64,000 nt of DNA from Aldrovandia affinis (taxonomy: Eukaryota > Chordata > Actinopteri > Notacanthiformes > Halosauridae). The stretch covers positions 3,247,001 through 3,311,000 of the forward strand of contig JAINUG010000018.1 of NCBI GenBank assembly GCA_029706075.1. Reading direction: 5' to 3'. Shown here piece by piece: positions 3,746 through 56,262 of this stretch (positions are counted from its first letter, which is position 1; each line of letters opens with the position of its first letter). The notes below the pieces were generated by a model that ran no database searches, was not told the origin of the DNA, and worked only from the letters and a program-made list of their open reading frames with translations. Made by a program: the position numbers and the translations under genes.

Positions 3746-4762
3746 ATGGCTGGAAAGGTGCTTTCAAAAGGACTCTGGGATAAAGTTGTGGATAGGCACA
3801 AGTTAGGAGAAGGATATAAAAAGATTTCAAAGGCTTTAACTATCCCTCTGAGTACCCATTCAGAGTATTATTAAGAAGTGGAAGGCATATGGCACCACCC
3901 ACACCTTGCCAAGATCGGGCCGTCCCTCCAAACTGGATGATTGATCAGGGAAGCTACCAAGAGGCCAATGGCAACCTTGAAGGGGTTACAAGTCTTGAAG
4001 GCAGAGATTGGGTGATCTGTGCATGTGACAACAATCTCACAAGCTTTACACAAAGCTGGCCTGTATGGCAGGGTGGCAAGAAAGAAGCCTTTTCTGAAAA
4101 AGTGTCACACTGAGTCTTGTTTACGTTATGCGAAGAAACACACAGAAGATTCTGATGCCATGTGGCAAAAGGTTATATGGTCAGATGAGACCAAGATTGA
4201 ACTTTTTGGACTGAACTCCAAGCGCTCTGTTTGGCGGAAACCAAACACAGCACACCACCCAAAACACACCATACCTACAGTGAAGCATGGTGGTGGCAGC
4301 ATTATGTTGTGGGGTTTTTTCTCTTCAGCGGGGACTGGGCAATTGGTCAGGATTGAAGGGAAAATGGATGCTGCCAAGTACACCCAAATTCTTGAGGAAA
4401 ACCTGCGGCCCTCTGCTAGACAGCTGAAGATGGGCAGGTGGTTCACCTTCCAGCACGACAACGACCCAAAACACACCGCCAAAAAAACAACACAGTGGCT
4501 AAAGGACAGGAAGGTGAATGTCCTTGAGTGGCCTAGTCAGAGCCCTGACCTAAATCCGATAGAACATCTGTGGATGGACTTGAAGAGTGCAGTCCATCGC
4601 CGCTCACCACGGAATTTGACTGAACTGGAACAGTTCTGCAAGGAAGAATGGGAAAAAATTGCGCAATCTAGGTGCGCAAAGCTGGTAGAGACATATCCAA
4701 ACAGACTGATGGCTGTAATTAAAGCAAAGGTGCCTCTACAAAGTATTAAATCAGGGGACTGA
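3746..4762 (+). pseudogene. Tc1 transposase (DD34E), N-terminal region damaged
   Basis: The product would bind the element's inverted repeats and catalyse cut-and-paste transposition in the nucleus. The likely original start is ATG 3746 (MAGKVLSKGLWDK...), a typical Tc1 N-terminus leading into the paired-type helix-turn-helix. That frame is lost after about 43 codons by a one-base shift near 3858, inside the DNA-binding domain. It is regained before the intact 247-residue frame at 4019-4762. In that frame the catalytic triad is visible: D56 in WSDETKIELF, D147 in QHDNDPKHT and E182 in [11 protein letters not shown]. The last two are 34 residues apart, the DD34E spacing. The catalytic core is therefore well kept and the DNA-binding half is not, so the copy should be unable to transpose itself. 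Confidence 0.92.
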
Positions 4763-11519: not shown

Positions 11520-11523
11520 ATAC
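11520..11523. repeat. Target-site duplication ATAC, left copy
   Basis: ATAC immediately precedes the TG that opens the 5' LTR at 11524, and ATAC recurs at 14511-14514 immediately after the CA that closes the 3' LTR. A 4-bp duplication is within the range seen for Ty3/Gypsy-type integration. Its exact preservation supports a recent, single insertion event. Confidence 0.8.
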
Positions 11524-11674
11524 TGTGGCAGCCCGAAGGGTTGCCCCAGAAAATGGCTGCCTGGCCTCCAACACATGGCAGCCATTTTCACTACATTTCC
11601 CAGCATGCCACCGCAACACCTGAACGAAGTCAGGCAATGGGAGCTAACGACCAGCTGAAGGCCATTGCAAGGCC

Positions 11675-11682
11675 TATTTAAA
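11675..11682 (+). promoter_or_regulatory. TATA-like box in 5' LTR
   Basis: TATTTAAA lies about 150 bp into the LTR in the position expected for the U3 promoter. The same word is present at 14092-14099 in the 3' LTR. It would drive transcription of the internal frame. Confidence 0.6.
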
Positions 11683-11993
11683 GGTCTCGCTCCCAGAACC
11701 TATTGAGAGGAGTAGGAACGTCAGTGGGAAGGAGTGCTGTGTGTTTTGTAGAGAGAGAGAGAGAAACCTGTGGAAGTCGTTGACCAGCCAGGATTTGTAA
11801 AGAGAGTGTTGGAGTGTGTTTTTGTGTGTCTTTGTGTGTCTTTGGAAATTGGATTGTTTTGGACTACGGACTGGATTGCGGACTACGAACTGGATTTTGG
11901 ACTTGGAACGGACTTTGACAAACGAGATAAGGATTGTGGACTTTGTTTGTATTCCCCTGAAGACCCCACCCTTTGTTTTGTGTTTGTTAGTTT

Positions 11994-11999
11994 AATAAA
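11994..11999 (+). terminator. Polyadenylation signal AATAAA in LTR
   Basis: AATAAA is followed within about 60 bp by GT-rich sequence. The equivalent AATAAA in the 3' LTR is at 14407-14412 and would end the element's transcript. Confidence 0.6.
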
Positions 12000-12099
12000 T
12001 TGTCATTTTTGCTTATTACTGCCTCCTCCGTATTCTTGCACTTGCCTACGCCCTCTGCAAGGTCCGTGAGTGTCGCCCAACCCCTGGGGACACCACATA

Positions 12100-12117
12100 T
12101 GGTGGAGAATGCGGGCA
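12100..12117 (+). promoter_or_regulatory. Primer-binding site complementary to tRNA-Ala
   Basis: TGGTGGAGAATGCGGGCA begins 2 bp after the 5' LTR. It is the reverse complement of the 3' end of the vertebrate tRNA-Ala(AGC) acceptor arm plus CCA as I recall that sequence, over 18 bases. This is the normal size and place for minus-strand priming. A decayed version of the same site (TGGTGGATAATG...) follows the minus-strand LTR at 19.72 kb, so more than one element here used the same primer type. Confidence 0.8.
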
Positions 12118-13464
12118 GAGGGCAGCACAGATAGGCAAGAGGAGGTAGTGCAGCAGGGTTTGTGTTTCGTTTGTGCAACGGACTCCATGAAGGAAGAGAT
12201 GGAGAGACTGAAAAGACGGGCAGCCATGGTGGAGGACCAATGGCGTGTCACCCTCCGTGAGGTCCAACAGCTGAAGCAGAGTGCCCAGCTTGAGCTGTGC
12301 AAGGGAAAGCTGGAGTTGAACACCTCAGAGGAGCGCCACCTGCTGGCGGTGATGAAATTGCAAGAGGAGCACCACCTGGACTCCCTGAGAGTGCTGGGAA
12401 TCATGGCTGGGGAGATGGAAAAGGAGAAGGCATCCCTTGGCGATGCGATGAGGCGTGTAGAGTCCCACAACTTGGCGCTCAAAGAGCAGGTGAGAAACCT
12501 AACGCAGGGGCTTGAGAATGAGCAGCGACAGTGTCTGGACATGCAGGAGTCCCAGGACCAGGCCACAGATGAGTATGCCAGGGCCTTGGGGGATGCACAG
12601 ACCAGGCTCGCCCAGAAGGAGGCAGAGCTAAGGAAAGCAGCCGAGAACCATGCGTCCGAGGCGGAGCAACTCCGGTGCCGAGTGGAGCAGGAGAGCAGGG
12701 ATACGCACCAGGTCGAGGCCAACGCCCTGCGGGAGCAGCTGGCCCAGCTGGAGAAGAGCGTGGAGCAGGAAAAGGCCCAGAACCAGGAGCTACAGGCGGT
12801 CCAGGAGAAGGCCTTGAGGGGGGAATCCGAGAGGCACGGCCAACAGCTCAAGGAGCTCCGTGACCAGCTGGAGAAGAGCGTGGAGCAGGAAAAGGCCCAG
12901 AACCAGGAGCTACAGACCGAGCAGGAGAAGCTCCTGGCCCAGAGAGAGGACGTCAGCTCCCAGCTGCAGGAGGTGAACCGTGCCAACAGCCGGCTCCTGG
13001 AGCAGCTGACTGAACGGGGCCAAGAGAAGGACAAACTCCAGCAAGAGCTGGAGGAGACCTGGAAGACGGCGGACAAGCGCAAGGCCATGCTGGACGAGCT
13101 GGCCATCGACGTGGCGCAGGAGAAGTCGCGGCACAAGGAGGAGCTGAGCGACGCGTGGCTGCAGCACGAGAAGGAGGTGCTGGGCGTGCGGGCGCGCTAC
13201 GAGAAGGAGCTGCGTGGCCTGCACGAGGACAAGAACCGCACCGAGGAGGAGATCCGCTCACAGCTCCGCGACGAGAAGGCCCGCACTCGGGAGCTGGAGA
13301 GCCTACAGCAGACGGTGGAGGAGCTGCAGGCTCAAATCCAGTCCATGGAGGGAACCAAGGGATGGTTAGAGCGCAGACTCAAGGAAGCAGAGAAGAATGG
13401 AGCGCAGAAATTCTGGTCGGAAGAAAAACGGGAAACTGAACCGGCAGATGATGGAATGGGATGA
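12109..13464 (+). CDS. Element-borne coiled-coil protein with a GRIPAP1 (GRASP1)-like C-terminal part
   Basis: The frame is open for 451 codons from ATG 12109, which lies inside the primer-binding site; ATG 12187 (MKEEMERLKRR) is an alternative start. It is almost all heptad-rich coiled coil with Glu, Gln, Lys and Leu dominant. Residues about 275-429 closely match my memory of vertebrate GRIPAP1/GRASP1, a neuronal recycling-endosome scaffold. Shared blocks include RANSRLLEQL, KRKAMLDELA, HEKEVLGVRARYEKEL, EKARTRELE and QQTVEELQAQ followed by GWLERRLKEAE. Residues about 150-275 are weaker candidates for the same origin, and the first 150 are unassigned. A 51-bp block (12745-12795) is repeated exactly 120 bp later, giving EKSVEQEKAQNQELQ twice. 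There are no gag, protease or RT motifs. Base composition is far GC-richer than the surroundings. Whether a protein is made is unknown. Confidence 0.8.
   Translation: MRAEGSTDRQEEVVQQGLCFVCATDSMKEEMERLKRRAAMVEDQWRVTLREVQQLKQSAQLELCKGKLELNTSEERHLLAVMKLQEEHHLDSLRVLGIMAGEMEKEKASLGDAMRRVESHNLALKEQVRNLTQGLENEQRQCLDMQESQDQATDEYARALGDAQTRLAQKEAELRKAAENHASEAEQLRCRVEQESRDTHQVEANALREQLAQLEKSVEQEKAQNQELQAVQEKALRGESERHGQQLKELRDQLEKSVEQEKAQNQELQTEQEKLLAQREDVSSQLQEVNRANSRLLEQLTERGQEKDKLQQELEETWKTADKRKAMLDELAIDVAQEKSRHKEELSDAWLQHEKEVLGVRARYEKELRGLHEDKNRTEEEIRSQLRDEKARTRELESLQQTVEELQAQIQSMEGTKGWLERRLKEAEKNGAQKFWSEEKRETEPADDGMG
12745..12915 (+). repeat. 120-bp internal tandem duplication in the coiled-coil frame
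   Basis: A 51-base block at 12745-12795 recurs without change at 12865-12915, in frame (period 40 codons). It adds about 5.7 heptads to the predicted coiled coil. Exact identity over 51 bases suggests that this part of the duplication is recent or homogenised. Confidence 0.85.
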
Positions 13465-13940
13465 CCCTAGGAACTGGCTAGGGAAGGGGGATTTGAAGGA
13501 AAATGTGGAAAATAAATCAAAGGAGAAAGTTAACTGTCTGTTGAAGAGCATGTTTTCCCCAGTTACCCCACCTGACCCCCTGAAAGGAAAAGGGACATGG
13601 AAGAAAAAGCCCGAGAAGGGACTAAGGAAGGAAATGCTGCACAGGGTTCGCTGGAGGAGCCATGGAGGGCTGGTGAAGACCAGAGCAGGAGCGGTGACCG
13701 CTCCGTCCGTGGAGTCCAGAGCCTGTACCCACTGGTGGCCATTTTGTGGCAGAAAAGGTGAGCAACTTGCGTCACTCATTAATGTCTGCCAGACATTTTT
13801 TCAGGCGAATGGAGATGGATTCTGGACGTTTGACCCAGGGGGGACACTTCCTGAGTGGACCTGGAGAGGGGGACCCTCCTGGTGGCCGCTGGACCTAGGC
13901 CGCTCGGCCCTCCCCGAGGTCGGAGCTGAGGAGGAGGGTG
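13465..13940 (+). other. 3' internal region of the LTR element with polypurine tract
   Basis: This lies between the end of the coiled-coil frame and the 3' LTR. A second frame crosses it but shows no retroviral domain that I recognise. The last bases before the LTR (13928-13940, GAGGAGGAGGGTG) form a purine-rich tract suited to plus-strand priming. The region may derive from the untranslated or 3' part of the helper element. Confidence 0.65.
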
Positions 13941-14510
13941 TGTGGCAGCCCGAAGGGTTGCCCCAGAAAATGGCTGCCTGGCCTCCAACACATGGCAGCC
14001 ATTTTCACTACATTTCCCAGCATGCCACCGCAACACCTGAACGAAGTCAGGCAATGGGAGCTAACGACCAGCTGAAGGCCATTGCAAGGCCTATTTAAAG
14101 GTCTCGCTCCCAGAACCTATCGAGAGGAGTAGGAACGTCAGTGGGAAGGAGTGCTGTGTGTTTTGTAGAGAGAGAGAAACCTGTGGAAGTCGTTGACCAG
14201 CCAGGATTTGTAAAGAGAGTGTTGGAGTGTGTTTTTGTGTGTCTTTGTGTGTCTTTGGAAATTGGATTGTTTTGGACTACGGACTGGATTGCGGACTACG
14301 AACTGGATTTTGGACTTGGAACGGACTTTGACAAACAAGATAAGGATTGTGGACTTTGTTTGTATTCCCCTGAAGACCCCACCCTTTGTTTTGTGTTTGT
14401 TAGTTTAATAAATTATCATTTTTGCTTATTACTGCCTCCTCCGTATTCTTGCACTTGCCTACGCCCTCTGCAAGGTCCGTGAGTGTCGCCCAACCCCTGG
14501 GGACACCACA
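13941..14510 (+). repeat. 3' LTR
   Basis: 570 bp, matching the 5' LTR with about 99.5 percent substitution identity by eye, plus one 4-bp GA-repeat difference. It carries the same TATA-like box (14092-14099) and AATAAA (14407-14412), and is followed by the ATAC target duplication at 14511-14514. Confidence 0.95.
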
Positions 14511-14514
14511 ATAC

Positions 14515-14872
14515 ATTTGAAATAGTTATTTTAAATTTCAGTTGGACAAAGTTCGTTACCATGCACGTGTGCAAGGGATGTCAGTGTGGTACATGATGGA
14601 CAGGACCAGATTTTTTTCTGTAATCCTGTGATTCTTTGGATCTTTGTGCCTTTAAGAAACTTTAACAATATGTTTAAATAGGTTAACTCAATTTCATACT
14701 TTATTTTGCACCTCTCCACTGGTAGAGAATGGCCAACAGAAAGAATGAGAGAAGCCCATTGTATTGATATAATGCCATATGCTAGTTAGCTTCTCAGAAG
14801 GGTTCAACAGATGAATAATGAAGAAAGTGAATCATTTTTTAAGTTAGCTAGCTATATATATATATATATATG
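14515..14872. other. Short non-coding spacer ending in a TA tract
   Basis: Ordinary AT-rich sequence with a TA microsatellite at about 14853-14871 directly next to the SINE that follows. No gene-like frame is seen. Confidence 0.6.
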
Positions 14873-15001
14873 CCATTTAGCAGATGCTTTTATCCAAAGC
14901 GATTTACAGCATACATTTTTCAGTACATGTGGTCCCAGTGGGAATTGAACCCACAACCTAAGCGTTACCAACACCATGCTGTACCAACTGAGCCACACAG
15001 A
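14873..15001 (-). mobile_element. tRNA-derived SINE with L2-like tail, minus strand
   Basis: Read on the minus strand, the element has a tRNA-like head (GTGGCTCAGTTGGTACAGCA as A-box region, TGTGGGTTCAATTCCCACTG as B-box region). It ends in CTGTAAATCGCTTTGGATAA and GCATCTGCTAAATGGC. That tail matches the 3' end of the L2 LINE at 27.8 kb. A second copy in the same orientation is at 56.1 kb. Confidence 0.88.
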
Positions 15002-16062: not shown

Positions 16063-18520
16063 GTGAGGAGTGAAGAAGTACTGACGTGCTGCTTTTGGAT
16101 CCAGTGGAGAGGGCAACTGCTAATATCTTTCAGGTGCTCACAGACTTGGTCAGAGATAAGACACCAGTTTCATCGATGCAATCGTCATTTGTTGATTGCA
16201 GACAGAAGCCAGGAGAAGAAATGTGTGCTTACTTACTCCAATTACAAGAGCTCGGAAGCTCCACCTCCAAAGACATGACCCCATTAACCCGGTACAGTTT
16301 TACCACATTGTGCAGGACCAGTTCGTCATTATACTACAAGAGGAAGCTCTGAAACAAAGATTACGGAGGTTAGTGCGTAAACATGAAGATTCCACATTCA
16401 ATGACGTAAAGTGATGTTCCCCTACGTGCATAGCCATGGAATGACTTGGAGCACAGCCCCACCACTGGAGCTGCCAGCTAACTCACCACTGTCAAGATAA
16501 TTGGAAGAAGGAGTTTAAGCAGGAAATACTGAAGGAAATGAAGTTTCAGATTGAGGCCATGAGAAAGTCCCTCTTGCAACAGGTTCGAGGCCACTCTCCC
16601 CAGTCCTCCTTTGCCCTAGCCCAGACATCAGCTTCCCCAACCCAGTGGACAAATAGGTCCCAGTGGTTCAGTGCAGCCTTCTCAGAAGGGGCCCCTGGCA
16701 TACCCCAGGCACCAGAGGGATGCTACCAGCTGCCCTATCTGTGCACAGTGTGGCATTAGCAGTCATATTGCCAGATATTGTAAGCAGCCTAGCAAACCTC
16801 AGCCCCTTTTAAATTATCCATGCCAGTCACGCCTTAAACCCATGGACCTACACCTTGAAACAGCTATTATTAACAGATGTCCCATGGTGCAAGTCCAGAT
16901 GGAAGGAAAGAAGGTGAGGTACCTGCTAGATACAGAGTCTGAGGCAATGTTCATGTCCAAAGGTTACTTTCAATAATTATTTGGGAACTGTGAGGTTAGC
17001 CAAGCTGGGGACATACCCTGGATCTAGCTTCATGCAGTTAATGGACTCGATATTCCATATGTTGGGTATGTAACCTTAACATTCCAAGTAAGGGATTTAG
17101 CCTTACTAGCTAAAGGGGTCATTATTACCAGAGATAGGGACAAAGTTCCAGTATTGGGAAGGAATGCCATTGAAGCCTGCTGGAATGAGCTATCGGTCTA
17201 GCTAATCAGTCTCCCTTAGGGGGCTCGCCATATATTTCCCCCCAGGCTAACGTGGTGTGGCAGACATGGCAAGAGCCTTTGCAGCATGCCGATAAATCAA
17301 GGTGACTAACAAGCCCTCCAACCAGAGCAGAGTGGTGCACACAGTAAGTTAGCAGCCCCGGAAGGTACCACCAGAAATCAAGGTGTTGTTGTGTGTACGA
17401 GTGCCAGTTAGCTTGAGGAGACCAGGACAGCAATTACTGGTGGAACCCTGCACTGGACAATGCAAGGATTGGAGTGGCCAGAATTCTTGGAGGGGTACAG
17501 AAAGGTTGCATTCCTGTGAGGGTAAGAAACATCCACCCCTACCCTGTTTATGTCTACCGACACCAACTGCTAGCCCTGGCACCTTTGATTGATTCATTGG
17601 ATGTGCATGATGCTGCTAGCCCTGCACTTACAGAGGTGTACCCTGGGGTAATGGAAGTGGGAGTGTCTGCTGCCATGATCATGCCTACAGAATCTACTTG
17701 GGACATTGAGATGAGGCAATTGTGAGAATGTTGAGAATGGCAAACCCTCAAGAAGTTTCTCATCAAGTGGACTGACATCTTTGCCAGGCATGAGGTAGAT
17801 TATAGGCAAACAGACACCATCCAACACCAGATACCACATTTACATTACATTTACATTTTAAGCATTTAGCAGATGCTCTTATCCAGAGCGACTTACAAGA
17901 TGTGCATTAATACATGGTAGCAACAATCATAGCGCACAAGATCAGTGCAGGAATACAGCAATATACATCATTGCAGGCATCTGCGTACCATACCTTTAAC
18001 ACCGGGAAGGAAAAGGTTAGTTCATTTTTTTTTTTTTTTGGGGGGGGGAGTATAGTGTTGAACAAGTAAACAGCAGTGAAGACAATTTAGCTAGAGCAAG
18101 TGACACACCTCCCTTTTGCGAGCGCCATAGACCTGTACGACACTGTATAGGGAAATGAAGGCACAACTGCAGAACATGCTTGAGACTGGGGTAATCAAAG
18201 AAAGCACATGGGCAGCCCTGGTTCACAAGAAAGATGGATCCATACATTTTTGTGTTGATTACAGAAAACGGAATTCCATCATGCACAAAAACAACCACCC
18301 CCTCCCTAGCATCGAGGAGGCACTCACCAGCATTAGCTAATCTGAATTCTACTCCACCTTGGACCTTGAAAGTGGCTACTAGCAGGTTGAAGTGCACTAA
18401 GAGGATTGGGAAAAGACCACCTTTGCCACGCCCATGGGCTTTTTTGAGTTTGAATGGATACCCTTTGGGCTCTGCAATGCACCAGCCACCTTCCAACATT
18501 TGATGTAGCACTGTCTCAGG
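16063..18520 (+). mobile_element. Old Ty3/Gypsy retrotransposon fossil (gag-pol remnants)
   Basis: Parts appear in Gypsy order on the plus strand. A gag-like segment lies at about 16086-16414. A CCHC zinc knuckle (CAQCGISSHIARYC) is at 16740-16781. A retropepsin-like segment follows at about 16860-16976, and protease-RT linker sequence at about 17400-17730. A reverse-transcriptase segment at about 18155-18510 contains VHKKDGS, FCVDYRK and, further on, PFGLCNAPATFQH. No flanking LTR pair was found. The copy is broken many times over and clearly old. An L2 LINE end is inserted between linker and RT at about 17841-18110. Confidence 0.88.
17841..18110 (-). mobile_element. 5'-truncated L2-type LINE end inserted in the Gypsy fossil
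   Basis: The reverse complement matches the 3' end of the L2 element at 27.6-27.89 kb over its whole length. Shared blocks include CTAGCTAAATTGTCTTCAC, CTTTTCCTTCCCGGTGTTA, the GTACGCAGATGCCTGCAATG block and the terminal TCGCTCTGGATAAGAGC. The (T)n/(G)n run at 18025-18048 lies within it. It is a typical truncated LINE insertion and is younger than the Gypsy copy that it interrupts. Confidence 0.9.
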
Positions 18521-23588: not shown

Positions 23589-24329
23589 TTATCCCCCTCT
23601 ACTCCGGTGTCCCACCAGTGGGACACTCTGCCACACCCCCGTCATAAAATCATAAAAATATGGATATTAATAAGTATATACTTCTCCACATATCACACAA
23701 TACCTACATATAATATATTAAACGATGGGGATTTTTGTCCTGGATGTTAAGTATATTAACACATTTTAATTAAAACGGGCAAAACTTACAGGCTGCACCA
23801 CGGCCAATGGCCGTTTTGGGTTACGGCGTGTTGACAATGTTGACATGATTTCATATAAAATCTAATATAATACACGGTCATATTGGACATAGCTAAATAC
23901 AAAATATTCTAAGGATTAAAATAAGACCAAAGTTGCCTAATTTACATACAAATGACCAAAGTTACGACAAGTTTTACATGCATTTCACATTGACTTTCAA
24001 CAACGCGAACTAGTACGAGTTCGCAGAAACCAAAAGTAATTTATCTCGTAATACACTAAATACCAAGAAAGTAACCAAAACACTGGTAGATTGTAAAAGA
24101 CAAACTTGTTAACGTGAAAATCTGTATAAACACATCTACATCGGCATAAATACGTATTATAGCAGTGTTTTCGTATTTTTTCCTCACCGGAAATTCAAGA
24201 TGAAAAAAAAAGTGAAAAAAACGTACTTTTTCCTAACATGTTGTTTTTCATTTGCCACACAGAAACGTCATTATCACTGATTGACAGCTTTTATTTCAAA
24301 TAGGAGAAGAGTATCTTACAGCCAATTCA

Positions 24330-24766
24330 GTGACCATTTGTATACGGGTTTCTTATTTGCTCAAACCAGGCAAAGATCCAGCGCATGCAAAGAGCTTTCG
24401 CCCAATCTCTCTGCTATGCCACCTCTACAAGCTGTTTGAGCGCTTGATTCTTAACAGGCTTGCCCCTGTTGCTGAACCAACCATCATCCCCAAGCAAGCC
24501 GGATTCCGACCTGGCAAATCTACAACAAGCCAACTTCTGAACCTCACTCAACACATTGAGGATGGGTTTCAGAAAGGACTGGTAACAGGAGCCGTCTTTG
24601 TTGATCTGTCTGCCGCGTATGACACTGTGAACCATCGCCTCCTCCTAAAAAAGACCTTGGAGTTGACAAAAGACCTGGCACTCACAGACCTCATTGGAGC
24701 CCTCCTGAAAGATAGGCGCTTCTTTGTTGTCCTGAATAACAAGCATGATTTGCGCCCCGGTGCCCA
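24330..24766 (+). pseudogene. Non-LTR retrotransposon reverse-transcriptase fragment
   Basis: An open frame of about 145 codons carries RT blocks in order: KPGKDPAHAKSFRPISLL, LFERLILNRL, QAGFRPGKSTTSQLL and VFVDLSAAYDTVNHRLL. The VDLSAAYD block is RT motif A with its catalytic Asp. The style fits the Jockey/I/CR1 broad group of LINEs; I cannot fix the clade. It begins abruptly and ends near LLKDRRFFVVLNNKH, before the YxDD box, so it is an internal fragment with no endonuclease and no 3' tail. Confidence 0.85.
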
Positions 24767-24849
24767 TTCGCACCGGTTCCACAGCGCACGCTACGCCTCT
24801 GTGCGCTACGGAGGAAAAAACTGTCTTCCTATTGTTACATTTTTTTTTT

Positions 24850-24937
24850 CTTACTTTTTTTTGGGGCGACCCCACCATTACCCTTTGGCGACCCCAAGTG
24901 GGGTCGCGACCCATAGTTTGAGAACCGCTGCTGTATG
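24850..24937 (-). mobile_element. hAT-type terminal fragment
   Basis: The reverse complement starts CAGCGGTTCTCAAACTATGG and continues GGTCGCGACCCC, a hallmark terminus of hAT-family elements in vertebrates. Only one end is present. It follows the LINE fragment and lies inside the possible 23.6-26.4 kb element. Confidence 0.65.
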
Positions 24938-25744
24938 TATTACTAAGTTTTGTTAGGACATGTACATTGCTTTGTAAAGTTGGAAAATAAATCCCCAGAA
25001 GTTGATAATGACAAGACATGGAGGTTTGTTTACCGAACCTAAAATCGTTTACTGAATTTACCGAGTGAAGATAGAAGCTCTTTCATTCCGGTAGCGAACA
25101 CGTTTATGGTAAATCCATGTTTAATTCACTCCTATTATGTCTTGTGCTAGCTAGCTACATAGCAAAGTATGTGTTTGCTGTTTTTTGGTTTTATTTTCAA
25201 TGCTAATATAGTTTCATTGCTAGCTAGCAGTGATTGCTAGCTAGTCCCCTTGGATTGCATTCGTACTAAACGAACAAAACCATCATTTTACCACTACTTC
25301 CAGGCTTACAGATATGAACAGTAGCACATCTTATTTAGATATATACTTTTTGTACGCATTTTTTATGCAGTGTGATTATAATCACACATTTTTATATGTG
25401 TAATTATACATATAATAATGCAAATTATTCTGTTTTGGGCTATTTCATGGGCTGTTTGGGCTATTTACACCAGCACAGATGAAGCGTGCACCTGGGATTT
25501 CACTGGACATCACACATTCCTTCAGCTGTATTGCCACTACTTTGCCTGACACCATGATTACAATTACCTATTTGGCCTTGGAGTAATATGTTCAGTATTC
25601 TCCATTCTTTTCCCCAGGGTTTATGAACATCACAAACATACAATCTGAGGTAATTACATGGTACTCAGTCATACAATTATTGACATATGCTATGCAAAAA
25701 TATATCTATTTCAATAAATTTAGTTAAAACGCCTGTTGTTTCCT

Positions 25745-27086: not shown

Positions 27087-27890
27087 TTGGATCTCACCCA
27101 AGAGGCCACTCAACTCCTGGTCCAGGCCCTGGTGATCTCACGTCTGGACTACTGCAACTCCTTGCTGGCAGGCCTTCCGGCCTGTGCCATCAAGCCACTG
27201 CAACTAGTCCAGAACGCTGCTGCTCGCCTGGTGTTCACCACCAGCGAAGTTCACCCACGTCACCCCTCTACTCTCCTCTCTGCACTGGCTCCCCATCGCA
27301 GCACGCATCAGATTCAAGTCACTGGTGCTTGCTTTTCAAGCGGCCAGAGGTGCTGCTCCCCCATACCTCCAGTCACTCATCACGCCCTACACCCCGTCCA
27401 GACCTCTCCGCTCCGCCTCCGCTGGCAGACTGACTGCCCCATCCCTCCGGGCGCCTGGCAGCCGCTCCTCGCGGTCTCGCCTCTTCTCTGTCCTGGTCCC
27501 TCGTTGGTGGAACGACCTCCCGCAATTGGTCAGGACTGCGGAATCACTTCCAATCTTCCGCAAGAGACTCAAAACCCACCTCTTCAGACTCCACTACCCC
27601 TGATCTCTGTCCATCTAGCTAAATTGTCTTCACCACTGTTTACTTGTTCAACACTATACTCTTTATTTAAATTTAAAAAAATGTACATTTTGTAAACATT
27701 GTAAAATACCTTTTCCTTCCCGGTGTTACAGGTATGGTACGCAGATGCCTGCAATGATGTCTATTGCTGTATTCCTGCACTGATCTCGTGCGCTAACTGA
27801 TTGTTCCTACCATGTATTGATGCACATCTTGTAAGTCGCTCTGGATAAGAGCGTCTGCTAAATGCTTAAAATGTAAAATGTAAAAATGGA
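27087..27890 (+). mobile_element. 5'-truncated L2-type LINE, C-terminal RT region and 3' UTR
   Basis: The frame at the start reads LVQALVISRLDYCNSLLAGL, then LQLVQNAAARLV. This is the conserved segment after the RT domain of L2/CR1-group LINEs. A later block in another frame (ARGAAPPYLQSLI, and RSRLFSVLVPRWWNDLP near the end) is also standard for this group. The 3' UTR ends TAAGTCGCTCTGGATAAGAG followed by GCTAAATGC and short AAAATGTAA repeats. A second, inverted copy of the tail is inserted in the Gypsy fossil at 17.84 kb. Truncated at the 5' end and frame-shifted, it is dead. Confidence 0.93.
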
Positions 27891-39374: not shown

Positions 39375-40210
39375 TGTGGCATCGCAAGTGGCAGGATGAG
39401 GAAATGGATGCCTGCATCTTTCTTAGGAGCCACTGGAGAGGAAAAAACTACATTTCCCAGCAGCCTGCAGTCCAGCACTGAGAGAGGAGTAGGTTAGTGG
39501 TTGTTGAGTGGTTTTGAGAGAATTGTTTTTGAGAGAATTGTTTGGATTGTGTTTTGGAATTGGATTGTTTTGACGACCCTGCTTGTGTACTGATTTTTGG
39601 ACTGGATTAAGGAACTGGATTGGATTTTGACTATGGATTATGGATAACGACGACGAGTAAGGTTTGTGGACTTTGTGTTTTGGATTTCCCCGAATACCCC
39701 ACCCTTTGTTTTTTGTTTGTCAAGATTAAGTTAATAAAGTGTCATTTTGTTTGTAATGCTGCTTCCTAGGGCGGCACGGTGGTGCAGTGGATAGCACTGT
39801 CGCCTCACAGCACCAAGGTCCCGGGTTCGAATCCCGGCCGGGGGCCTTTCTGGGTGGAGTTTGCATGTTCTCCCCGTGTCCACATGGGTTTCCTCCGGGT
39901 ACTCCGGTTTCCTCCCACAGTCCAAAGACATGCACGTTAGGCTAATTGGAGAGTCTAAATTGCTCTGTAGGTATGAGTGTGTGAGTGAATGGTGTATGTA
40001 GTGCCCTGCGATGGATTGGCGACCTGTCCAGGGTGTATTCCTGCCTCTCGCCCCAATGCATGCTGGGATAGGCTCCAGCCCCCCCGCGACCCTGACCAGG
40101 AATAAGCGGCTGAAGATGAGATGAGATGAGATGCTGCTTCCTCCGGGTTATTTAACTTGCCTACGCCCTCTGCAAGGTCCGTGAGTGTCGCCCAACCCCA
40201 AGGGACACCA
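39375..40210 (+). mobile_element. Solo LTR related to the 11.5 kb element, with a SINE inserted
   Basis: It starts TGTGGCATCGC and shares, in order, ACTACATTTCCCAGCA, GGATTGTTTT, GGACTTTGTGTTTTGG, CCCCACCCTTTGTTTT, AATAAAGTGTCATTTTG, GCCTACGCCCTCTGCAAGGT and CCGTGAGTGTCGCCCAACCCC with the LTRs at 11.5 and 13.9 kb. It ends GGGACACCA. Without the SINE it is about 460 bp. It has diverged well beyond the young LTRs and has no internal region, so it is an older solo LTR of a related subfamily. No target duplication was established. Confidence 0.88.
39768..40130 (+). mobile_element. Full-length tRNA-derived SINE with 12-bp target duplication
   Basis: The flanking 12-bp word ATGCTGCTTCCT is present at 39756-39767 and 40131-40142. 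The head has A-box GTGGTGCAGTGGATAGCACT and a perfect B-box GGGTTCGAATCCC. The conserved middle reads GGAGTTTGCATGTTCTCC and CCTCCCACAGTCCAAAGACA. The tail is GGGATAGGCTCCAGCC, ending in GATGA/GATGAGAT repeats. This is a common teleost SINE type with a LINE-like 3' part. It is inserted in the solo LTR and is therefore younger than it. Confidence 0.95.
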
Positions 40211-43200
40211 GTGTGTATCAGTTTCCTACTGAAAAATTGCTTTTCTCAGCAGGACATGTATATAGCATATTGTAGTTGTCCAGCATGAGGAAGTTTAGTT
40301 CAGTTTAGTTTGTGTATTTCCATCTAAGCCTTCTATATTTAAAGATGTTTATTAGCTGAATGTTTAATTGATGCACTTGTGATGCTCAGCTCAAAAGCTC
40401 TCTCCTTTCCCACGTGCTCTGTCTCCAATCTCACAATCACTCACAGTACTGCTGCATGATTATGTAATTTACTTTATTGTAGTGAAAGCTTAATATTCAA
40501 CATAACAAAAACCAGTGCACATGCATATATTTATTTCAAAAACATGTATTGCACAGTTTGATGGGGGTAGAGCCAGTCTTTCTCTTAAGTGCATTGAACC
40601 ACTCCAAGTGCAATGCTTAAATACGTCCTTAATTGAATACAGATTGCATTTCAAATTGTCTTTTATTAAACTATTTGCCTCGGAGTGAAGTAAAACACAG
40701 AACATCCACAAAACATCCAGTGACACATTTGCCCTATCTGTTAACATCTGAACATACAGTATAAACTAACAACAGCATTTTGCTGTTTGTATGAAGAGCG
40801 TTGAGTGCATGCCTCCCCCATGTTCATATGTGTGCATTAATGTCACCTAACTAGCACATTATGCCTGCGTTTGAATTAAGAGGGGGTCTGGGTGGACGAA
40901 AAGGCAAACAAAATATCAGACAGGAAACTTACACAATGGAAGATGTTTTTATTGACACCCCCCATTCCACCGTCTTATCCATGTTGACAAAAATGCCTAT
41001 TACTGCAAACCACAACTACACTGGGCAGAGACAAGACATTCTGTTTGTGATGGATGAAACTAGCAATTACAATACAATACTGTCCAGGTGTATTTTCGCT
41101 ACCGTCCTTCAACTCTGTGGCAGTGTAAACATGTTAATTCTTTCAAAAGTGTCACTTTGACACTGCACAGATTGGAACAATATACGTATATACTTTACAG
41201 TGCCAAATGTTAATGTTTTCAATGTAATATAATTTTACCAGTTTTCCAAAACTGACTTTACATGATCAAGTGATCAATTTTCTGCATTTTGTAGGCAAGA
41301 TGAAGCCTTTATTTTTGTAAATAAAGAATTTTAAAGACAATACTTCTGAAATGGGACATGAGCATAAGCTTTTGAATTTGGCAGATTTTTTCTTGTTATC
41401 TCATCTGAGAATAGATAAATTCCCACACATTCACACATGTGACACAATAGTTCTGATTGTCTGAATCTGCTATATACCACTACATTAACATTTTTTTATC
41501 ATGCACTTAAGACAATGAAACTATACTTTGCAACACATACAATATGTGTACAATACAATTTCCAGGCTTAAAAAGACAGGTTTCTTTTATAGTCTTTAGT
41601 GTGATACCACAATAGTGGGATAGAGTTATCATAAAAAACATTGTTACACTGACTTAGAGTTAATTTCATGGACTATGTTACATGTTCTGATTTGTATTTG
41701 TAATACATGCTTGTGGTCCGTGAGTAAAATCATTTTTAGACTAAAATAACTAAGAAGGGAAAGAGGCTCTGACAAGCACAAAGGGAGGTTAGCTCCTCAG
41801 AGATTCATACATTTCCTACCTTCTGTCTGGGAAAAGGCTTGTGTGACAATGTGCACTGAATTCTGCAACCACAAAGTCCACAAAGAGAAAATATATTTCT
41901 CTATCGCCAAACCCAACTACTACCCCACTCCCGCATTGCCTCTTTATTGTTGTACAAAATGTTGATTTTTACTTTGCGGTGAGCTGGCAAAACCCAGACA
42001 AAAAAACCCAGACAAAAAAATGGAAGGCACCCTGTTGGTGCAAGAGACCGCAGCAGACCAGACTCATGACTGCTTTTTGGTGCGCTTCTTCGTGGAGCGA
42101 AGGATTCTCGTATCCGAGGAGAGAAGTGTGAGAAAAGGCACAATGCATGGTCCCCCTGGCATAGCCTCTGCATCAGAGAGTGTGAGAAAAGGCCCACATT
42201 TGATGCCTGACTGACCAAATCTTCTGCCAGATAGTTGGTTCTATTCCCCCTGGTTTAGAGGAGCATGGTCAGAAGTGTTGTAGATGGAGAGAGAAGCCAC
42301 GGTAATTGTATCAAGGTCTGTTGAGATTTTCTCAAACCGCTTTCAGTAAAAGGAAAGGGGTCCCAAGACAGTGGCAGCAACTTCTGCAGAATAACGAAAA
42401 AACAGTGTGCACTCATATATGAATAACATTCAATTTATCACATGAAAGCCCATATATTGAATACTACACCTTTACTGTTTCCACCTCTATCTATTTTTGA
42501 ACTTCAAAATGAAAACAAGTCTTTAATTCTACACAGGTTTTGATGGTATTCCATGTGTTGTTTGAAACTACTGACATTCTTTTTGGAATACAATTTGTGT
42601 TGCCACTTGTAATGGCATGTGAATTAGAATGGAACGTGATGTGAATTAGAATGGTATGTGATTACAATGGTACGATGTACGCTTACAGGGAATTTGTATA
42701 TTTTATATTTTATTTATTTCTTGCAGCTATGTAGTTTTATGAGTTTCATGTGAAATGTACACACATACACACACACGCATATATATATATGAATAAACTA
42801 GCAAAATATAACTAATTATAGGCTACTTGATTATGGTGGATCACATTTACCATTCGTAACTTATTTTTATACCTTCCTATTTATAAGTCTCACAGTCAGT
42901 AATATTTTTTTCACCCTTACTTCTGTATTTTTATTGGTTAGATGTGGTAGGCAATTGGTCTTCTCTGTTTGTTTCTAAGTTAGGAAAGTAGATGAAATAT
43001 TTTCACCAGGAGAGGATGATTTACAAGAATAGACTCCTTACAAAGACCCCTCTTAAGGATGGAGCTATTGTAATGCTAAATATTTAATCGCTGATCTGAG
43101 TGAGAAGTTCAAAGGGCCCCAGGAGAGTGCCAGGAGGTACATGTCAAACTATCCTGCCCCATGTCATTTTAAGATATGGCACTCTTTCTGAGACCAAGAG

Positions 43201-44487
43201 CGTTGAAAGTGAAGGAGATGGTCTCATTACACAAAACATCTCCTCAGCCCTCCACTGCCAAGGGCCTATGTGTACGCAACATGTTAAACCTACTTTTTCT
43301 GGTTTAAGCCTGATCACGTAACAAGCTTTCATTCTGTAAAATCGATGTAAGAATAGTGCAAACATGAAAGTCAAATGACATTTCAAAGATTTCGCCATCC
43401 AGTGATCTCATGCATTGAATGCTATGCTTACAAAGGCCAGGATTGAATCAAAATTTGTCCTTAACTTTGATTTACAAATAAATGCAGGCCTTCGCTTTTT
43501 TTTCTTCACAGACAGTTTGGTGATTTAATTTTGGTGATCATTGAACTCAAACAACTGTAATTGTGAAAAAAACACCTGCATTTAATTGTGAGTCAATGTT
43601 AAGGATAAATGTTGATTGAATCCAGGCTGAAGTTGTAGGGAAGTTATTTTTATATGTGCTGTCAGAGTGAAATGTTTACTTTGTGTAGTTTTGGGGCATT
43701 TCCGGTTATTTCCGGTCCAGACTGCTGCAGCTATCGTAGGTGTCATTCTAAAATCTAAAATGTACAATATAAATTATGACAACAATAGCTACAATGGCAG
43801 TGATCAACCATCATATCATTGCTAACTAATAGCTATGACAGCTATTGTATTCAGTACAAACAGTACACACCGTAAAGTTAAACAGCAGCAGACAAGCGAC
43901 AATAACATAATGTTGCTCAGGTTACTATTTGATAAATGCATGCAATGCAATGGCTATTTTTACAAGCTTGTAATTCAACCCGGACTATGGTTAACATTGT
44001 CTTGCAACAAAGTAAATAAATGCTACTCCCACTTTCTCTGGTGTGAGCCCTTGTCATGTATCAGATGGCTAATTAACTTGAGGAACAAAGAGCTGGCGCT
44101 GATCTACATAAAGTAGCCTTGTTGACAGTTGTTAAATTTGTATATTCAAACTGTAAGTGACTATAATTAAGGCAAAATGTAACCTGGAACTATGAAGCCA
44201 GTTTACACATCATTTCCAGTTATATTTTTGCTCACATATATGAGGACGTGTTCTTCTTGAATGACATTGCAAAGTTGATACACTGACGCAGTATCACAAT
44301 GTTTATTTAATGTATAGACAAATAGATTTTTCTGTCACATTTAGTTTCGCATCAAACTTGAAACCAAAACTACAGCATGCAATTTTCTTTGTGAGGTCCT
44401 TCCATTTTTGCACAGGGTTGCTAATTAGCTCATAAGGGGTGTTGATTATTTTGTTATCCATAAATTCTCTCTTGTAGAAATTCTTTA
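40211..44487. other. Non-coding sequence, 4.3 kb
   Basis: No transposon or gene is recognised. Frames of 84-105 codons (for example 41901-42218 on the minus strand) lack motifs and good codon structure. A short (CA)n plus (TA)n patch lies at 42764-42790. This is one of the longer repeat-poor stretches and could contain conserved regulatory DNA, but nothing in the sequence alone proves that. Confidence 0.5.
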
Positions 44488-44489
44488 TA

Positions 44490-44986
44490 CACTGCCTGGT
44501 CCAAAAAAAAGTCACCACCTGGATTTAACTAAGCAAATAGGTAAGAGCCTTCCATTGGATAATAGTTGGTCAGGTCTAGGTTCAGCAACGTTATGTGCCC
44601 AAAGAATGAGGTCAGCTGACTACCTGAATATACTGAATGACCAGGTTTTTCCATCAATTGATTTTTTCTTCCCTGATGGCACGGGCATATTCCAAGATGA
44701 CAATGCCACGATTCATCGGGCTCAAATTGTGAAAGAGTGGTTCAGGGAGCATGAGACATCATTTTCACACATGGATTGGCCACCACAGAGTCCAGACCTT
44801 AACCCCATTGAGAATCTTTGGGATGTGCTGGAGAAGACTTTGCGCAGTGGTCCGACTCTCCCATCATCAATACAAGATCTTGGACTAATTAATGCAACTC
44901 TGGACGGAAATAAATGTTGTGACATTGCAGAAGCTGGTGGTCCAACTAAATATTAGAGTGTGTGACTTTTTTTGGGACGGGCAGTG
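44490..44986 (+). mobile_element. Internally deleted Tc1/mariner element, DD36E-like
   Basis: The left end CACTGCCTGGTCCAAAAAAA and right end TTTTTTTGGGACGGGCAGTG are inverted repeats flanked by TA (44488-44489 and 44987-44988). The 497-bp body keeps only the C-terminal half of a transposase. This is a different family from the elements at 3.4 and 45.2 kb, judging by ends and residue spacing. Confidence 0.93.
44555..44956 (+). pseudogene. C-terminal part of a Tc1-type transposase
   Basis: The frame has 133 codons. It contains [18 protein letters not shown] with the second catalytic Asp (residue 49) and [16 protein letters not shown] with the catalytic Glu (residue 86). Thirty-six residues separate them, against 34 in the canonical Tc1 at 3.4 kb, so this belongs to a DD36E-like lineage if the alignment is right. 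The DNA-binding domain and first catalytic Asp are missing through internal deletion, so it is inactive. Confidence 0.85.
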
Positions 44987-53902: not shown

Positions 53903-56126
53903 ACTTTCAACAGAAAAAATATTCTCTGCATAAATTTCCTAAAACTGCAGCCAGTTCCTTAGTGCTTAGTGAAAGTTTTTATTTTTTCATGAGGCACTAT
54001 CCACACGTTCTATATGTGTTGACCTTGAAAACAAGAGGAACTTCATATGTTTGATACAGCACCTGACAGAACGCATAGGTGTTTATTTGGTCTGTTGTCT
54101 GTTCTCTCTTTTAGTATCCATACTACCTTAATCTGCTGTTCAGAAACTGTACTGTAGGCGATGGGCTTGATACAGCTGTCCATATTTACGTTTTGACTTA
54201 AATACAGTTATGCTTAATTCAACCTAGAAATGTTCTCCAAAGCAGTAAACCCAAGGGCAGTATTTGGTTGTATTTTTCAGAGAGAAAATCCAGATTTCAT
54301 GGAAAAGAATAATACAATATTGATGAATTTCTCTATATTTTATATTTTTAAATATTTGTTTCTGTAAAACCTTTTTGATTATTGATGTAGTTGAATTGGC
54401 TTGTTTTCTTTACATTCTAATGATCTGAACACCTATTTCAGGGCTTACTCCAATAAATAAATGAATGGGGAAATATGTAATAATGTAATACATCTTAAAC
54501 AAATATATTAGAATATTTTAAAATATTTAAATATTTAATAAACCTTAAATAAATAAATGGGGAAAATATACACCATGCATACACCCTGTGGATAAAAACA
54601 GTTATTCAGTATGAGTCAACTCTGTGAATTACAAGTTTTCCCCCATAACAATACCTTTGAATTTATTATTGACTAATCAAAATGTAGCAATAGTTGACAA
54701 GTAAAACAAGCAAATGTTACATATAGGATTTGAAAACTAAATGTTTGGTACCAATGAGCAGTCTGGTTATGGACAGCGAAACATTGGGAGCTTACCACTA
54801 ACCTTTTGTATCAAACAGCTTGCTCTTTTCCCTGACAGTTTGACAACAATGTTGACACGCTCTTTTGTATTATCAACAGGAGTTACAAAGTGTGTTGAAT
54901 AAGGAAGAAAGGCTTTAATATACTAAACACTTTCTGAGACACAAACAGTTGCAGGTCTGCACAAATATACAGACAGTTTCCTTTTCTTTGGGAAGTCCCC
55001 AGATGAAAAACGGACTGTCCTACATAACTGCCTGCCGACGCCTGGCATCCTTGTTCCTGAGCCGTTTTGTTCGTTTGCATGCCTTTCCTCCGGTGAAGAT
55101 GCCCTGCGCTGCCATCATCTCTAAGGCAACAGTCAGTTGCTCACCCCTGCCCCCTACTGTCTCCTTTCAGTATAGGAGTGCTGAGACTTTAATCTTGTCG
55201 TAAAGTCTCCTCTCTGAGTCGTTTGAAGAAGAAATGCTAGGTCGGCACAATTGAGCTTCTCTTCCAGAAGCAGCTGTAAGATCTACTGTAAGCGTATCAA
55301 TGCTATTCCCATCACTGAACCAGATCTCAGTCTGAAACCTCAGTCTGTTTAGCTATAATTTCTTTTTTTCATGATTTTTTTTTCTCTTTTCCAGATTGTA
55401 CAACAGCGGAGTCAAAACATTTGTGCACATGTTGATGCCTGTTTTTAAACACACAGTATATGAGTACTGATAGACAACATATTTTTGCATCACATTTTAT
55501 TCTTCTTTGATTCAGTGACATGTTATTGCATACGTTGCAGAAGCTCAATGTGTACTTCTCATTATAAAAGAATAATGAAAAATAACACTAGATCCATATA
55601 TATTCCAAATGTCCAAATTAACTTTAGTTAAAAATGTAAACATTCATTGTATATATAATTTTATTTTTCCTATGAATTAACGTGAAGGTACAATAGGCAC
55701 TTTGTGTTTTCTAATTGGATACCAGACCATAGTGCATGTATGAAAGTGTTCTGGCACAGATAATCACACACTTCCATTCTCTATGCTCCTTTTTATGTGC
55801 TTGAAGCTGGTCTACATAAGGAAAACCCTTATCATTATAGCATAAATACTATGCTATGCTGTGTCTTAATTTCATATTCTAGGCATGGGGGGGGGGAATG
55901 GGTTGATATGTGTCTTGTAAACGTAAATAGTTTTAGGTGATATTAGTAGGGGATCTGTTCTGGTGTAATTATTCAGAGTGCTACAGGCACACCGTTAATG
56001 TGGCTTTTGAAGTACTGTGCTTTTGTTATGTGGCACCATATATAACATGCTCCTCATCGAACCACCTCCTCATTTTACTCTAAGATTCTGCGCCATATAA
56101 TAATACAATATAATAATACAGTATGT
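53903..56126. other. Non-coding sequence
   Basis: AT-rich with no gene recognised. A slightly GC-richer part at 54960-55200 is open on the plus strand for 84 codons but has no motif. An isolated G-run of nine lies at 55889-55897. Confidence 0.5.
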
Positions 56127-56262
56127 GCCATTTAGCAGACGCTTTTATCAAAAGCGACTTACAGTAGTGAATGCATACTTTTTTCAGTATAGGTGGTCCC
56201 AGTGGAAATTGAACCCACAACCTCAGTGTTGCATACGCCATGCTCTACCTACTGAGCCATAA
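56127..56262 (-). mobile_element. tRNA-derived SINE with L2-like tail, minus strand
   Basis: On the minus strand it reads ATGGCTCAGTAGGTAGAGCA (A-box region), TGTGGGTTCAATTTCCACTG (B-box region) and CTGTAAGTCGCTTTTGATAA plus GCGTCTGCTAAATGGC. It is the same family and strand as the copy at 14.87 kb. Confidence 0.9.

What the first reader, a model, noticed from the sequence alone, without database searches (positions are those of the whole stretch)
11524..14510. A young LTR element whose only long frame looks like a captured host gene piece (GRIPAP1)
Seen: near-identical 570-bp LTRs, 4-bp duplication, primer site, purine tract, and a single 451-codon coiled-coil frame with no gag or pol motif. 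From knowledge of the family: residues about 275-429 carry long blocks shared with vertebrate GRIPAP1 (RANSRLLEQL, KRKAMLDELA, EKEVLGVRARYE, QQTVEELQAQ, RRLKEAE). GRIPAP1 has many small exons, so an unbroken match of about 155 residues implies capture of spliced RNA. Inference: an LTR element transduced a host scaffold gene and then spread with it, much as acute transforming retroviruses carry host genes. Host-gene capture by non-infectious LTR elements in fish is rarely documented.
Basis: partly seen in the sequence, partly recalled or inferred. Interest (0 to 1): 0.92.

Follow-up and report, generated by a model that had tools for sequence, protein, structure and literature searches.

The report
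Fish retroelement built from host-gene pieces
A young jumping gene in a deep-sea fish carries, inside its own structural-protein gene, spliced pieces of two of the fish's genes (GRIPAP1 and CLIP1), which shows how mobile DNA can take up and spread host protein modules.

Summary
Window 11524-14510 is an LTR element with 574/570-bp LTRs (3 substitutions), TSD ATAC and one 451-codon frame, in Aldrovandia affinis. Frame residues 270-428 match the resident GRIPAP1 (153 of 159). GRIPAP1 copies in related elements are joined exactly at resident splice sites, so spliced RNA was captured.

The reading was incomplete. The frame's first half is the element's own coiled coil. Full-length relatives have 775-882-codon open frames for a gag-like protein with a CCHC knuckle, no pol found, under purifying selection (dN/dS mostly 0.3-0.6). 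The middle of the window frame derives from a second host gene, CLIP1 (CLIP-170); another copy carries CLIP1 with an intron removed precisely. Both host coiled coils sit in the same slot, replacing about 70 residues of the element's own coil.

The window copy is a shortened, recent, non-autonomous derivative without the CCHC part; its GRIPAP1 part shows no sign of constraint.

Gene transduction by LTR elements is known (maize Bs1, crocodilian ERVs). Repeated in-frame swapping of host coiled coils into a gag-like protein was not described in any paper my searches listed. The mechanism (template switching, pol in trans) is inferred.

The parts
11520..11523 (.). left target-site duplication ATAC
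11524..12097 (+). 5' LTR (574 bp)
11675..11682 (+). TATA-like TATTTAAA in the 5' LTR
   Evidence: read; function inferred
11994..11999 (+). AATAAA poly(A) signal in the 5' LTR
   Evidence: read; function inferred
12100..12117 (+). primer-binding site TGGTGGAGAATGCGGGCA; resembles the 3' end of a tRNA-Ala (recalled, not confirmed by a call)
   Evidence: a recalled tRNA pattern had no match in viral contigs
12109..13464 (+). chimeric open frame, 451 codons plus stop; modelled as two long helices
12187..12690 (+). the element's own coiled coil (81-99% DNA identity to relatives with and without GRIPAP1)
   Evidence: no homolog outside Aldrovandia found in the protein lengths searched
12750..12890 (+). 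CLIP1-derived piece, 94.3% identical over 141 bp to a resident CLIP1 exon and starting at that exon's first base
   Evidence: ORF nt 642-782; gene identity
12870..12930 (+). second, partial copy of the CLIP1 piece (61 bp, 91.8%)
12916..13392 (+). GRIPAP1-derived piece (resident residues 413-571), ending exactly at a resident exon end; 13279-13392 is one resident exon (109 of 114 bases)
13393..13464 (+). tail and stop; 96-100% identical to five relatives (L023-L026, L028), in which about 460-510 bp lie between GRIPAP1 and this tail
13465..13940 (+). 3' stretch of the element after the frame, shared by at least 40 places (capped)
13928..13938 (+). polypurine tract
   Evidence: read
13941..14510 (+). 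3' LTR (570 bp)
14511..14514 (.). right target-site duplication ATAC

Best explanation
This is a young, non-autonomous LTR retrotransposon of Aldrovandia affinis, from a family whose only gene encodes a gag-like protein (CCHC knuckle plus a long coiled coil); no polymerase was found. During reverse transcription of packaged RNAs, template switching replaced about 70 residues of the element's own coiled coil with coiled-coil segments copied from spliced host mRNAs: GRIPAP1 in one lineage and CLIP1 in another. Later recombination joined the two. The window copy is a shortened descendant of a chimera: own coil, CLIP1 piece and GRIPAP1 piece between LTRs of a related subfamily. Shown: the anatomy, the splice-exact capture of two genes, one shared slot, amplification, youth, and constraint on the family's own protein. 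Inferred: template switching, pol supplied in trans, the order of events, and that the swapped coils serve the same multimerising role as the coil they replaced.
For: LTRs, TSD, PBS and PPT. A 4-bp flank match in 14 of 15 elements examined (several in AT-rich flanks, where it is weak) and LTR divergence 0-0.025 in 17 pairs. Resident GRIPAP1 exons 534-571, 572-597 and 598-629 with canonical splice sites; element copies contiguous across both introns: L023, L024, L028, L035, L040 and L027. Resident CLIP1 exons separated by a 1956-bp intron and fused exactly in L038. CLIP1 named by two CAP-Gly exons and CLIP1_ZNF on the same contig and strand. Relatives without GRIPAP1: 10 of 10 loci L011-L020, picked for LTRs like the window's. 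Full-length GRIPAP1 chimeras with CCHC: L035 and L040. Purifying selection on the own protein: dN/dS 0.28-0.59 (N-terminal part) and 0.34-0.71 (own coil) in the listed pairs of 10 copies. Tree: 20 element copies group beside the resident gene.
Against: No autonomous partner was found: 0 of 12 loci matched one Gypsy RT and one integrase probe, so pol in trans is an assumption. The gag N-terminal model matches no solved fold (best Foldseek E 0.88) and the gag-like frames match no Pfam family above cut-off, so 'gag' rests on the CCHC knuckle and position. The window's GRIPAP1 part shows no constraint (dN 0.019-0.043 against dS 0-0.038), and some pairs of the own protein are not significant. The junctions between own coil and host pieces lie in repeat-rich DNA, so the exact switch points are not fixed.
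Confidence: 0.87

Rival explanations
1. The captured pieces are passive freight: GRIPAP1 and CLIP1 fragments were carried along by chance, and only cis-acting LTR, PBS and packaging sequences matter for spread.
For: In the window copy dN is close to or above dS in the GRIPAP1 part. The window copy lacks the CCHC part and about 460-510 bp between GRIPAP1 and the tail yet has near-identical LTRs. A frame of its length could arise by composition.
Against: Against the resident genes, other copies show few replacements: 6-8 synonymous and 1-3 replacement codons of 72 for GRIPAP1 in 6 copies (L026, with an indel there and 5/10, set aside), and dS 0.136-0.182 against dN 0.027-0.036 for CLIP1 in 6 of 6 copies. 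Host constraint contributes to both. Two different host genes, both coiled coils, fill the same slot in frame.
Confidence: 0.35
2. An ordinary processed retrocopy of GRIPAP1 (LINE-made) later became flanked by LTRs.
For: The GRIPAP1 stretch is intronless.
Against: It is an internal fragment (about resident residues 364-605 at most) joined in frame to element sequence on both sides in the full-length copies, repeated at >=51 places, with LTRs and 4-bp flank matches around copies.
Confidence: 0.02
3. The chimeric frames are now a host gene family (domesticated), not parasite genes.
For: At least 29 are annotated as hypothetical proteins, several fused in gene models with host domains such as doublecortin, plectin, GALNT and MAP7.
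Against: The copies examined as DNA lie between LTRs at different sites, and LTR divergence of 0-2.5% means recent transposition. Fusions may be annotation artefacts; no transcript was examined.
Confidence: 0.05
4. GRIPAP1 itself gained this segment from the element rather than the reverse.
For: None found.
Against: The segment is present in GRIPAP1 of teleosts and sturgeon among the listed hits, and element copies nest next to the Aldrovandia gene (93/84).
Confidence: 0.005

Closest known systems
Maize Bs1 LTR retroelement (read in passages of reviews PMC5408686 and PMC13317346)
   Same: LTR element that transduced segments of three host genes into a hybrid frame
   Different: Here the host pieces are swapped in frame into one slot of the element's own gag-like coiled coil, both are coiled-coil genes, and dozens of copies, the dated ones recent, exist in a vertebrate
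Crocodilian ERVs with captured KIT-ligand or nectin3 mRNA (passages of PMC4299795)
   Same: Captured host mRNA in an LTR element of a vertebrate, amplified, host-like group in the tree
   Different: Those are endogenous retroviruses with the host gene added or replacing env; here no pol was found and the capture is a partial module inside the gag-like frame
LTR-mediated retrocopies (Tan et al. 2016, known only through passages of PMC5408686; the paper is not held)
   Same: Template switching between LTR-element RNA and host mRNA; the review says zebrafish retrocopies arise partly this way
   Different: Those are described as retrocopies; here the chimera became part of an amplifying element family's gene
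Bdelloid rotifer LTR elements with extra ORFs (PMC5408684, seen as search listing and abstract start only)
   Same: LTR elements with additional captured ORFs
   Different: There, by the abstract start, the extra ORFs come in addition to the conserved ones; here the host module is inside the gag-like frame
GRIPAP1/GRASP-1 (passages of PMC2808209)
   Same: Source of the captured coiled-coil segment of up to about 240 residues
   Different: [quoted passage not shown] the numbering was not aligned across species by a call

Membership tests
LTR retrotransposon | paired LTRs with TG..CA ends and a target-site duplication | tested here: met
   574/570 bp, ATAC; 4-bp flank match in 14 of 15 elements of the family (several in AT-rich flanks, where a match is weak)
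LTR retrotransposon | primer-binding site and polypurine tract | tested here: met
   read; tRNA identity recalled, not confirmed (one search found no match)
Autonomous Ty3/Gypsy element or retrovirus | own RT and integrase | tested here: not met
   no RT or integrase in the two longest frames of the window element and none in 12 loci of relatives by one RT and one IN probe; superfamily therefore not assigned
Gag protein | CCHC zinc knuckle C-x2-C-x4-H-x4-C | tested here: met
   met in relatives: 9 of 10 loci L011-L020 (L016 lacks it) and full-length GRIPAP1 chimeras L035 and L040; absent from the window copy (frame)
Gag protein | capsid fold or Pfam gag family | tested here: inconclusive
   no Pfam family above cut-off; N-terminal model pLDDT 71.6, no PDB match at E<=0.001
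Host-gene-transducing retroelement (Bs1 kind) | host exons joined without introns inside the element | tested here: met
Host-gene-transducing retroelement (Bs1 kind) | element moved after capture | tested here: met
   LTR pairs and 4-bp flank matches around GRIPAP1-bearing copies: window, L023-L026 (three of these five, L023, L024 and L026, have AT-rich flanks); >=51 GRIPAP1 places
Acute transforming retrovirus | infectious particle and transforming host gene | not tested
   no env or pol seen in the window element; nothing bears on transformation
Processed GRIPAP1 pseudogene | mRNA ends, poly(A) tail, no LTR | tested here: not met
   internal fragment flanked by element coding sequence and LTRs

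The most novel reading that the evidence does not exclude
The gag-like protein of this family has an exchangeable slot: coiled coils are repeatedly replaced in frame by spliced coiled-coil modules of host cytoskeletal or endosomal scaffold genes (CLIP1, GRIPAP1), and selection keeps them because they multimerise, or tether the parasite's particle to host machinery, and let a pol-less element use another element's particles.
Probability: 0.3. Interest if true: 0.88.

Novelty: new variant of a known kind. Interest (0 to 1): 0.7.

Why it matters
It catches retroelement gene capture soon after it happened and more than once in one family, with pre-capture, post-capture and doubly chimeric relatives side by side, two GRIPAP1-bearing copies having LTR pairs without a substitution. 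That makes a long-standing question testable: whether host sequence taken up by retroelements is inert freight or is selected as a working module. It also shows that at least 29 'hypothetical proteins' of this fish annotation carry retroelement chimeras, so similarity-based GRIPAP1 or CLIP1 counts there can be inflated.

Tried and rejected
A host gene as the source of the N-terminal half: searches over proteins of about 371-1180 and 921-2930 residues found only Aldrovandia element copies (17 hits among 2634 candidates; 1 among 597). Shorter proteins were not searched with that part alone. The one long hit (P0123, a CEP85-named model) proved to carry an element fragment. Distant GRIPAP1 homology of the N-part: at chance (36-146 of 200 shuffles as good). 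The long-spacing copy C102 as autonomous partner: its extra 4.7 kb or so has no frame of 120 codons on the element's strand; the other strand was not looked at, so it is unlikely rather than excluded. Primer tRNA scan: no match. Fold search of the gag-like N-terminus: no match at E<=0.001. PDB by sequence: none. Phage records: none. Exon borders were first taken from isoform differences and later confirmed on resident DNA for two of them; at least two sets mixed species, so only borders seen in several species were used. In one search the mismatch counts for L023-L040 are wrong by a one-base offset; one search replaces them.
Full report
Host and element. The window lies in a 1.22-Gb assembly at C890:3247001-3311000. 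Its contig lengths equal those given for Aldrovandia affinis gene models (for example C890 9,049,682 = P0008; C213 3,129,969 = the resident GRIPAP1 P0025), so the host is this halosaur (Elopomorpha). The element has LTRs of 574 and 570 bp that differ by three transitions in 570 sites plus a 4-bp indel, TGTGGC...ACCACA ends, the duplication ATAC, an 18-nt TGG-starting primer site and a purine tract. With vertebrate neutral rates recalled as about 2.5e-9 to 1e-8 per site per year, K=0.0053 suggests a few hundred thousand to one million years; the rate was not measured.

The frame. 12109-13461 is open for 451 codons, has no proline between residues 27 and 428, and is modelled as two long helices, residues 9-216 and 239-431, mean pLDDT 80.5. 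Frame length alone is weak evidence because the interior is T-poor. Pfam gives nothing significant.

GRIPAP1. A search of 5.8 billion proteins gave 1638 hits at E<=1e-5 among the 8000 candidates scored; of the 120 listed, 26 are Aldrovandia hypothetical proteins carrying the chimera, one is the resident Aldrovandia GRIPAP1, and the rest are mostly GRIPAP1 of other fish. Frame residues 270-428 are 153/159 identical to the resident, 89-91% identical to the Anguilla, Conger, Albula and Scleropages proteins, and less to the five others compared. In a tree of 159 columns, 20 of 20 element rows form one group (support 94/81, not starred) next to the resident gene (93/84), inside elopomorphs. The tree held 20 of the 30 element sequences I had (29 models plus the window), those covering enough of the segment. 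Nineteen of 20 share V for L at resident position 425.

Spliced origin. The resident gene was located on C213, where the exons for residues 598-882 are short and spread over 27 kb. A 2.4-kb piece shows exons for residues 534-571, 572-597 and 598-629, separated by introns of 702 and 1258 bp with AG/GT borders. Element copies L023, L024, L028, L035 and L040 read straight across both borders; L027 does too, and L026 does with an indel. In the window, 13279-13392 is the exon 534-571 (109 of 114 bases), joined upstream without an intron, and the GRIPAP1 match stops exactly at that exon's end. In the widest copies the captured stretch runs from about residue 364-368 to 605. Each of the 51 rows for P0025 in the genome spans about as many bases as its residues need, with no intron-sized gap (51 of 1913 candidates were scored, so a lower bound; 4 of the 51 rows contain stop codons). 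The resident exons themselves do not appear in that list.

The element's own gene. Ten loci with LTR pairs close to the window's (L011-L020, 11 elements) contain the leader, the homolog of the frame's first half (81-86% DNA identity) and the 3' stretch, but no GRIPAP1 (0 of 10). They were picked for their LTRs, so this says nothing about the share of GRIPAP1 copies in the genome; six loci picked for the 3' stretch (L023-L028) carry GRIPAP1 in 6 of 6. The single gene is open for 817 codons in L013 and broken in others, and has a CCHC knuckle in 9 of 10 loci. So the frame's first half is element sequence. Twelve further loci chosen from the 159 matches of the N-terminal part (capped) gave eight with the own slot (two of them only 38-40% similar there), two with GRIPAP1 (L035 and L040, 869- and 876-codon open frames with the knuckle), one with another insert (L038) and one unclear (L037); none matched one Gypsy RT and one integrase probe. 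Between 10 copies, dN/dS is 0.28-0.59 for the N-terminal part and 0.34-0.71 for the own coil in the pairs listed with dS above 0.05; the C-terminal part ranges from 0.12 to 1.26, the last from 47 codons; the pairs are not independent and some are not significant. The protein is therefore maintained as a whole.

A second host gene. In L038 the slot holds a different coiled coil. Its source is a resident gene on C2466 (L051): exon A, a 1956-bp intron with GTAAGC...TTTAG, then a long exon B. L038 joins them exactly (AAGGCCAG|TCTCTCACT), at 96.8% over 217 bp and 93.5% over 401 bp. Two CAP-Gly exons upstream (C2466:7340155 and 7336066, minus) and a CLIP1_ZNF with the C-terminal knuckles downstream (7296540, minus) identify it as CLIP1; a CLIP1 paralog lies on C302. 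Exon A also matches window 12750-12890 (94.3% of 141 bp), from the exon's first base, and again partly at 12870-12930. The window frame is thus own coil + CLIP1 + GRIPAP1; the origin of 12691-12749 was not tested. In the genome, 142 rows match the 216-residue CLIP1 insert wholly or, mostly, in part.

The slot. Own form...EQLRGQVEQ | about 70 own residues | EAQQLATEKS... GRIPAP1 form...EQLRCRVEQ | (CLIP1 piece) GRIPAP1 ...KMAEIEA | QQRATEKS... CLIP1 form...EQLRCRVEQ | CLIP1 ...ENKDLKNT | RVDLQDRLEG.... The left edge is shared by these; the right edges differ by about 20 residues. Some copies (L023, L028, L035) have lost part of the own coil before the slot.

Window copy. Its GRIPAP1 interior and tail match group L023-L028 (tail 96-100% in five of the six), but its LTRs are 87-96% like the L011-L020 group and about 79-84% like those of L023-L026 (one part 89%), so LTR and interior have different histories. 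It lacks the knuckle part and about 460-510 bp between GRIPAP1 and the tail. Its GRIPAP1 part shows no constraint against eight copies (0-5 synonymous, 4-14 replacement changes). Against the resident, the last 72 captured codons of six other copies show 6-8 synonymous and 1-3 replacement differences, and CLIP1 parts of six copies give dS 0.136-0.182 and dN 0.027-0.036. Because host and element branches are equally old, so few replacements suggest constraint on the element side too, but no branch test was made.

Mechanism. Shown: spliced capture of two genes, in-frame use of one slot, amplification with 4-bp flank matches (14 of 15, several in AT-rich flanks) and LTR divergence of 0-0.025 in 17 pairs, two GRIPAP1-bearing pairs (L024, L026) without a substitution though of unequal length. 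Inferred: co-packaged host mRNA and template switching, the route described for LTR-mediated retrocopies in passages of PMC5408686; pol from another element; coiled-coil multimerisation as the retained role. In GRASP-1 the Rab4-binding stretch and the C-terminal syntaxin-13 part are mapped outside the middle (passages of PMC2808209), so the captured piece is probably a bare coiled coil; I did not align the numbering.

Known and new. Bs1 took three host genes (passages of PMC5408686 and PMC13317346); crocodilian ERVs took KIT-ligand and nectin3 mRNAs (passages of PMC4299795). My ten paper searches listed nothing that, by title and abstract start, concerns this family or host coiled coils swapped into a gag-like frame; the library lacks most subscription journals and the Tan et al. 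2016 paper.

Noticed in passing
window 39376-40212: A diverged relative of the LTR (76% and 90% identical pieces), probably a solo LTR, split by what reads like a tRNA-derived SINE at about 39769-40132.
   Followed up: partly
window 14867-14920, 17856-17908, 27818-27871, 56122-56175: Four UnaL2-type LINE 3' ends (Rfam), with a reverse-transcriptase piece at 24285-24956.
   Followed up: no
window 4016-4762 and 44429-44956: Tc1/mariner-like transposase (DDE_3) pieces.
   Followed up: no
Aldrovandia gene models P0008, P0012, P0021, P0022, P0024, P0030, P0086: Element coding sequence is fused in gene models to doublecortin, plectin, GALNT, methyltransferase, GPCR, MAP7 and cytokine-receptor-like genes; this could be intronic insertions called as exons, or real exonisation.
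   Followed up: no
L015 (C890:5683000-5689700): Three LTRs and two interiors in a row: a tandem element sharing the middle LTR.
   Followed up: partly
gene models P0004, P0005, P0006, P0009, P0019, and L021: A shared in-frame deletion joining KEEL to EELQAQ inside the GRIPAP1 part, between two similar codon runs; looks like a reverse-transcription slip inherited by a subfamily.
   Followed up: partly
P0014, Acipenser ruthenus GRIPAP1 model: Exons of the same GRIPAP1 region appear two to three times in this model; assembly error or true exon duplication.
   Followed up: no
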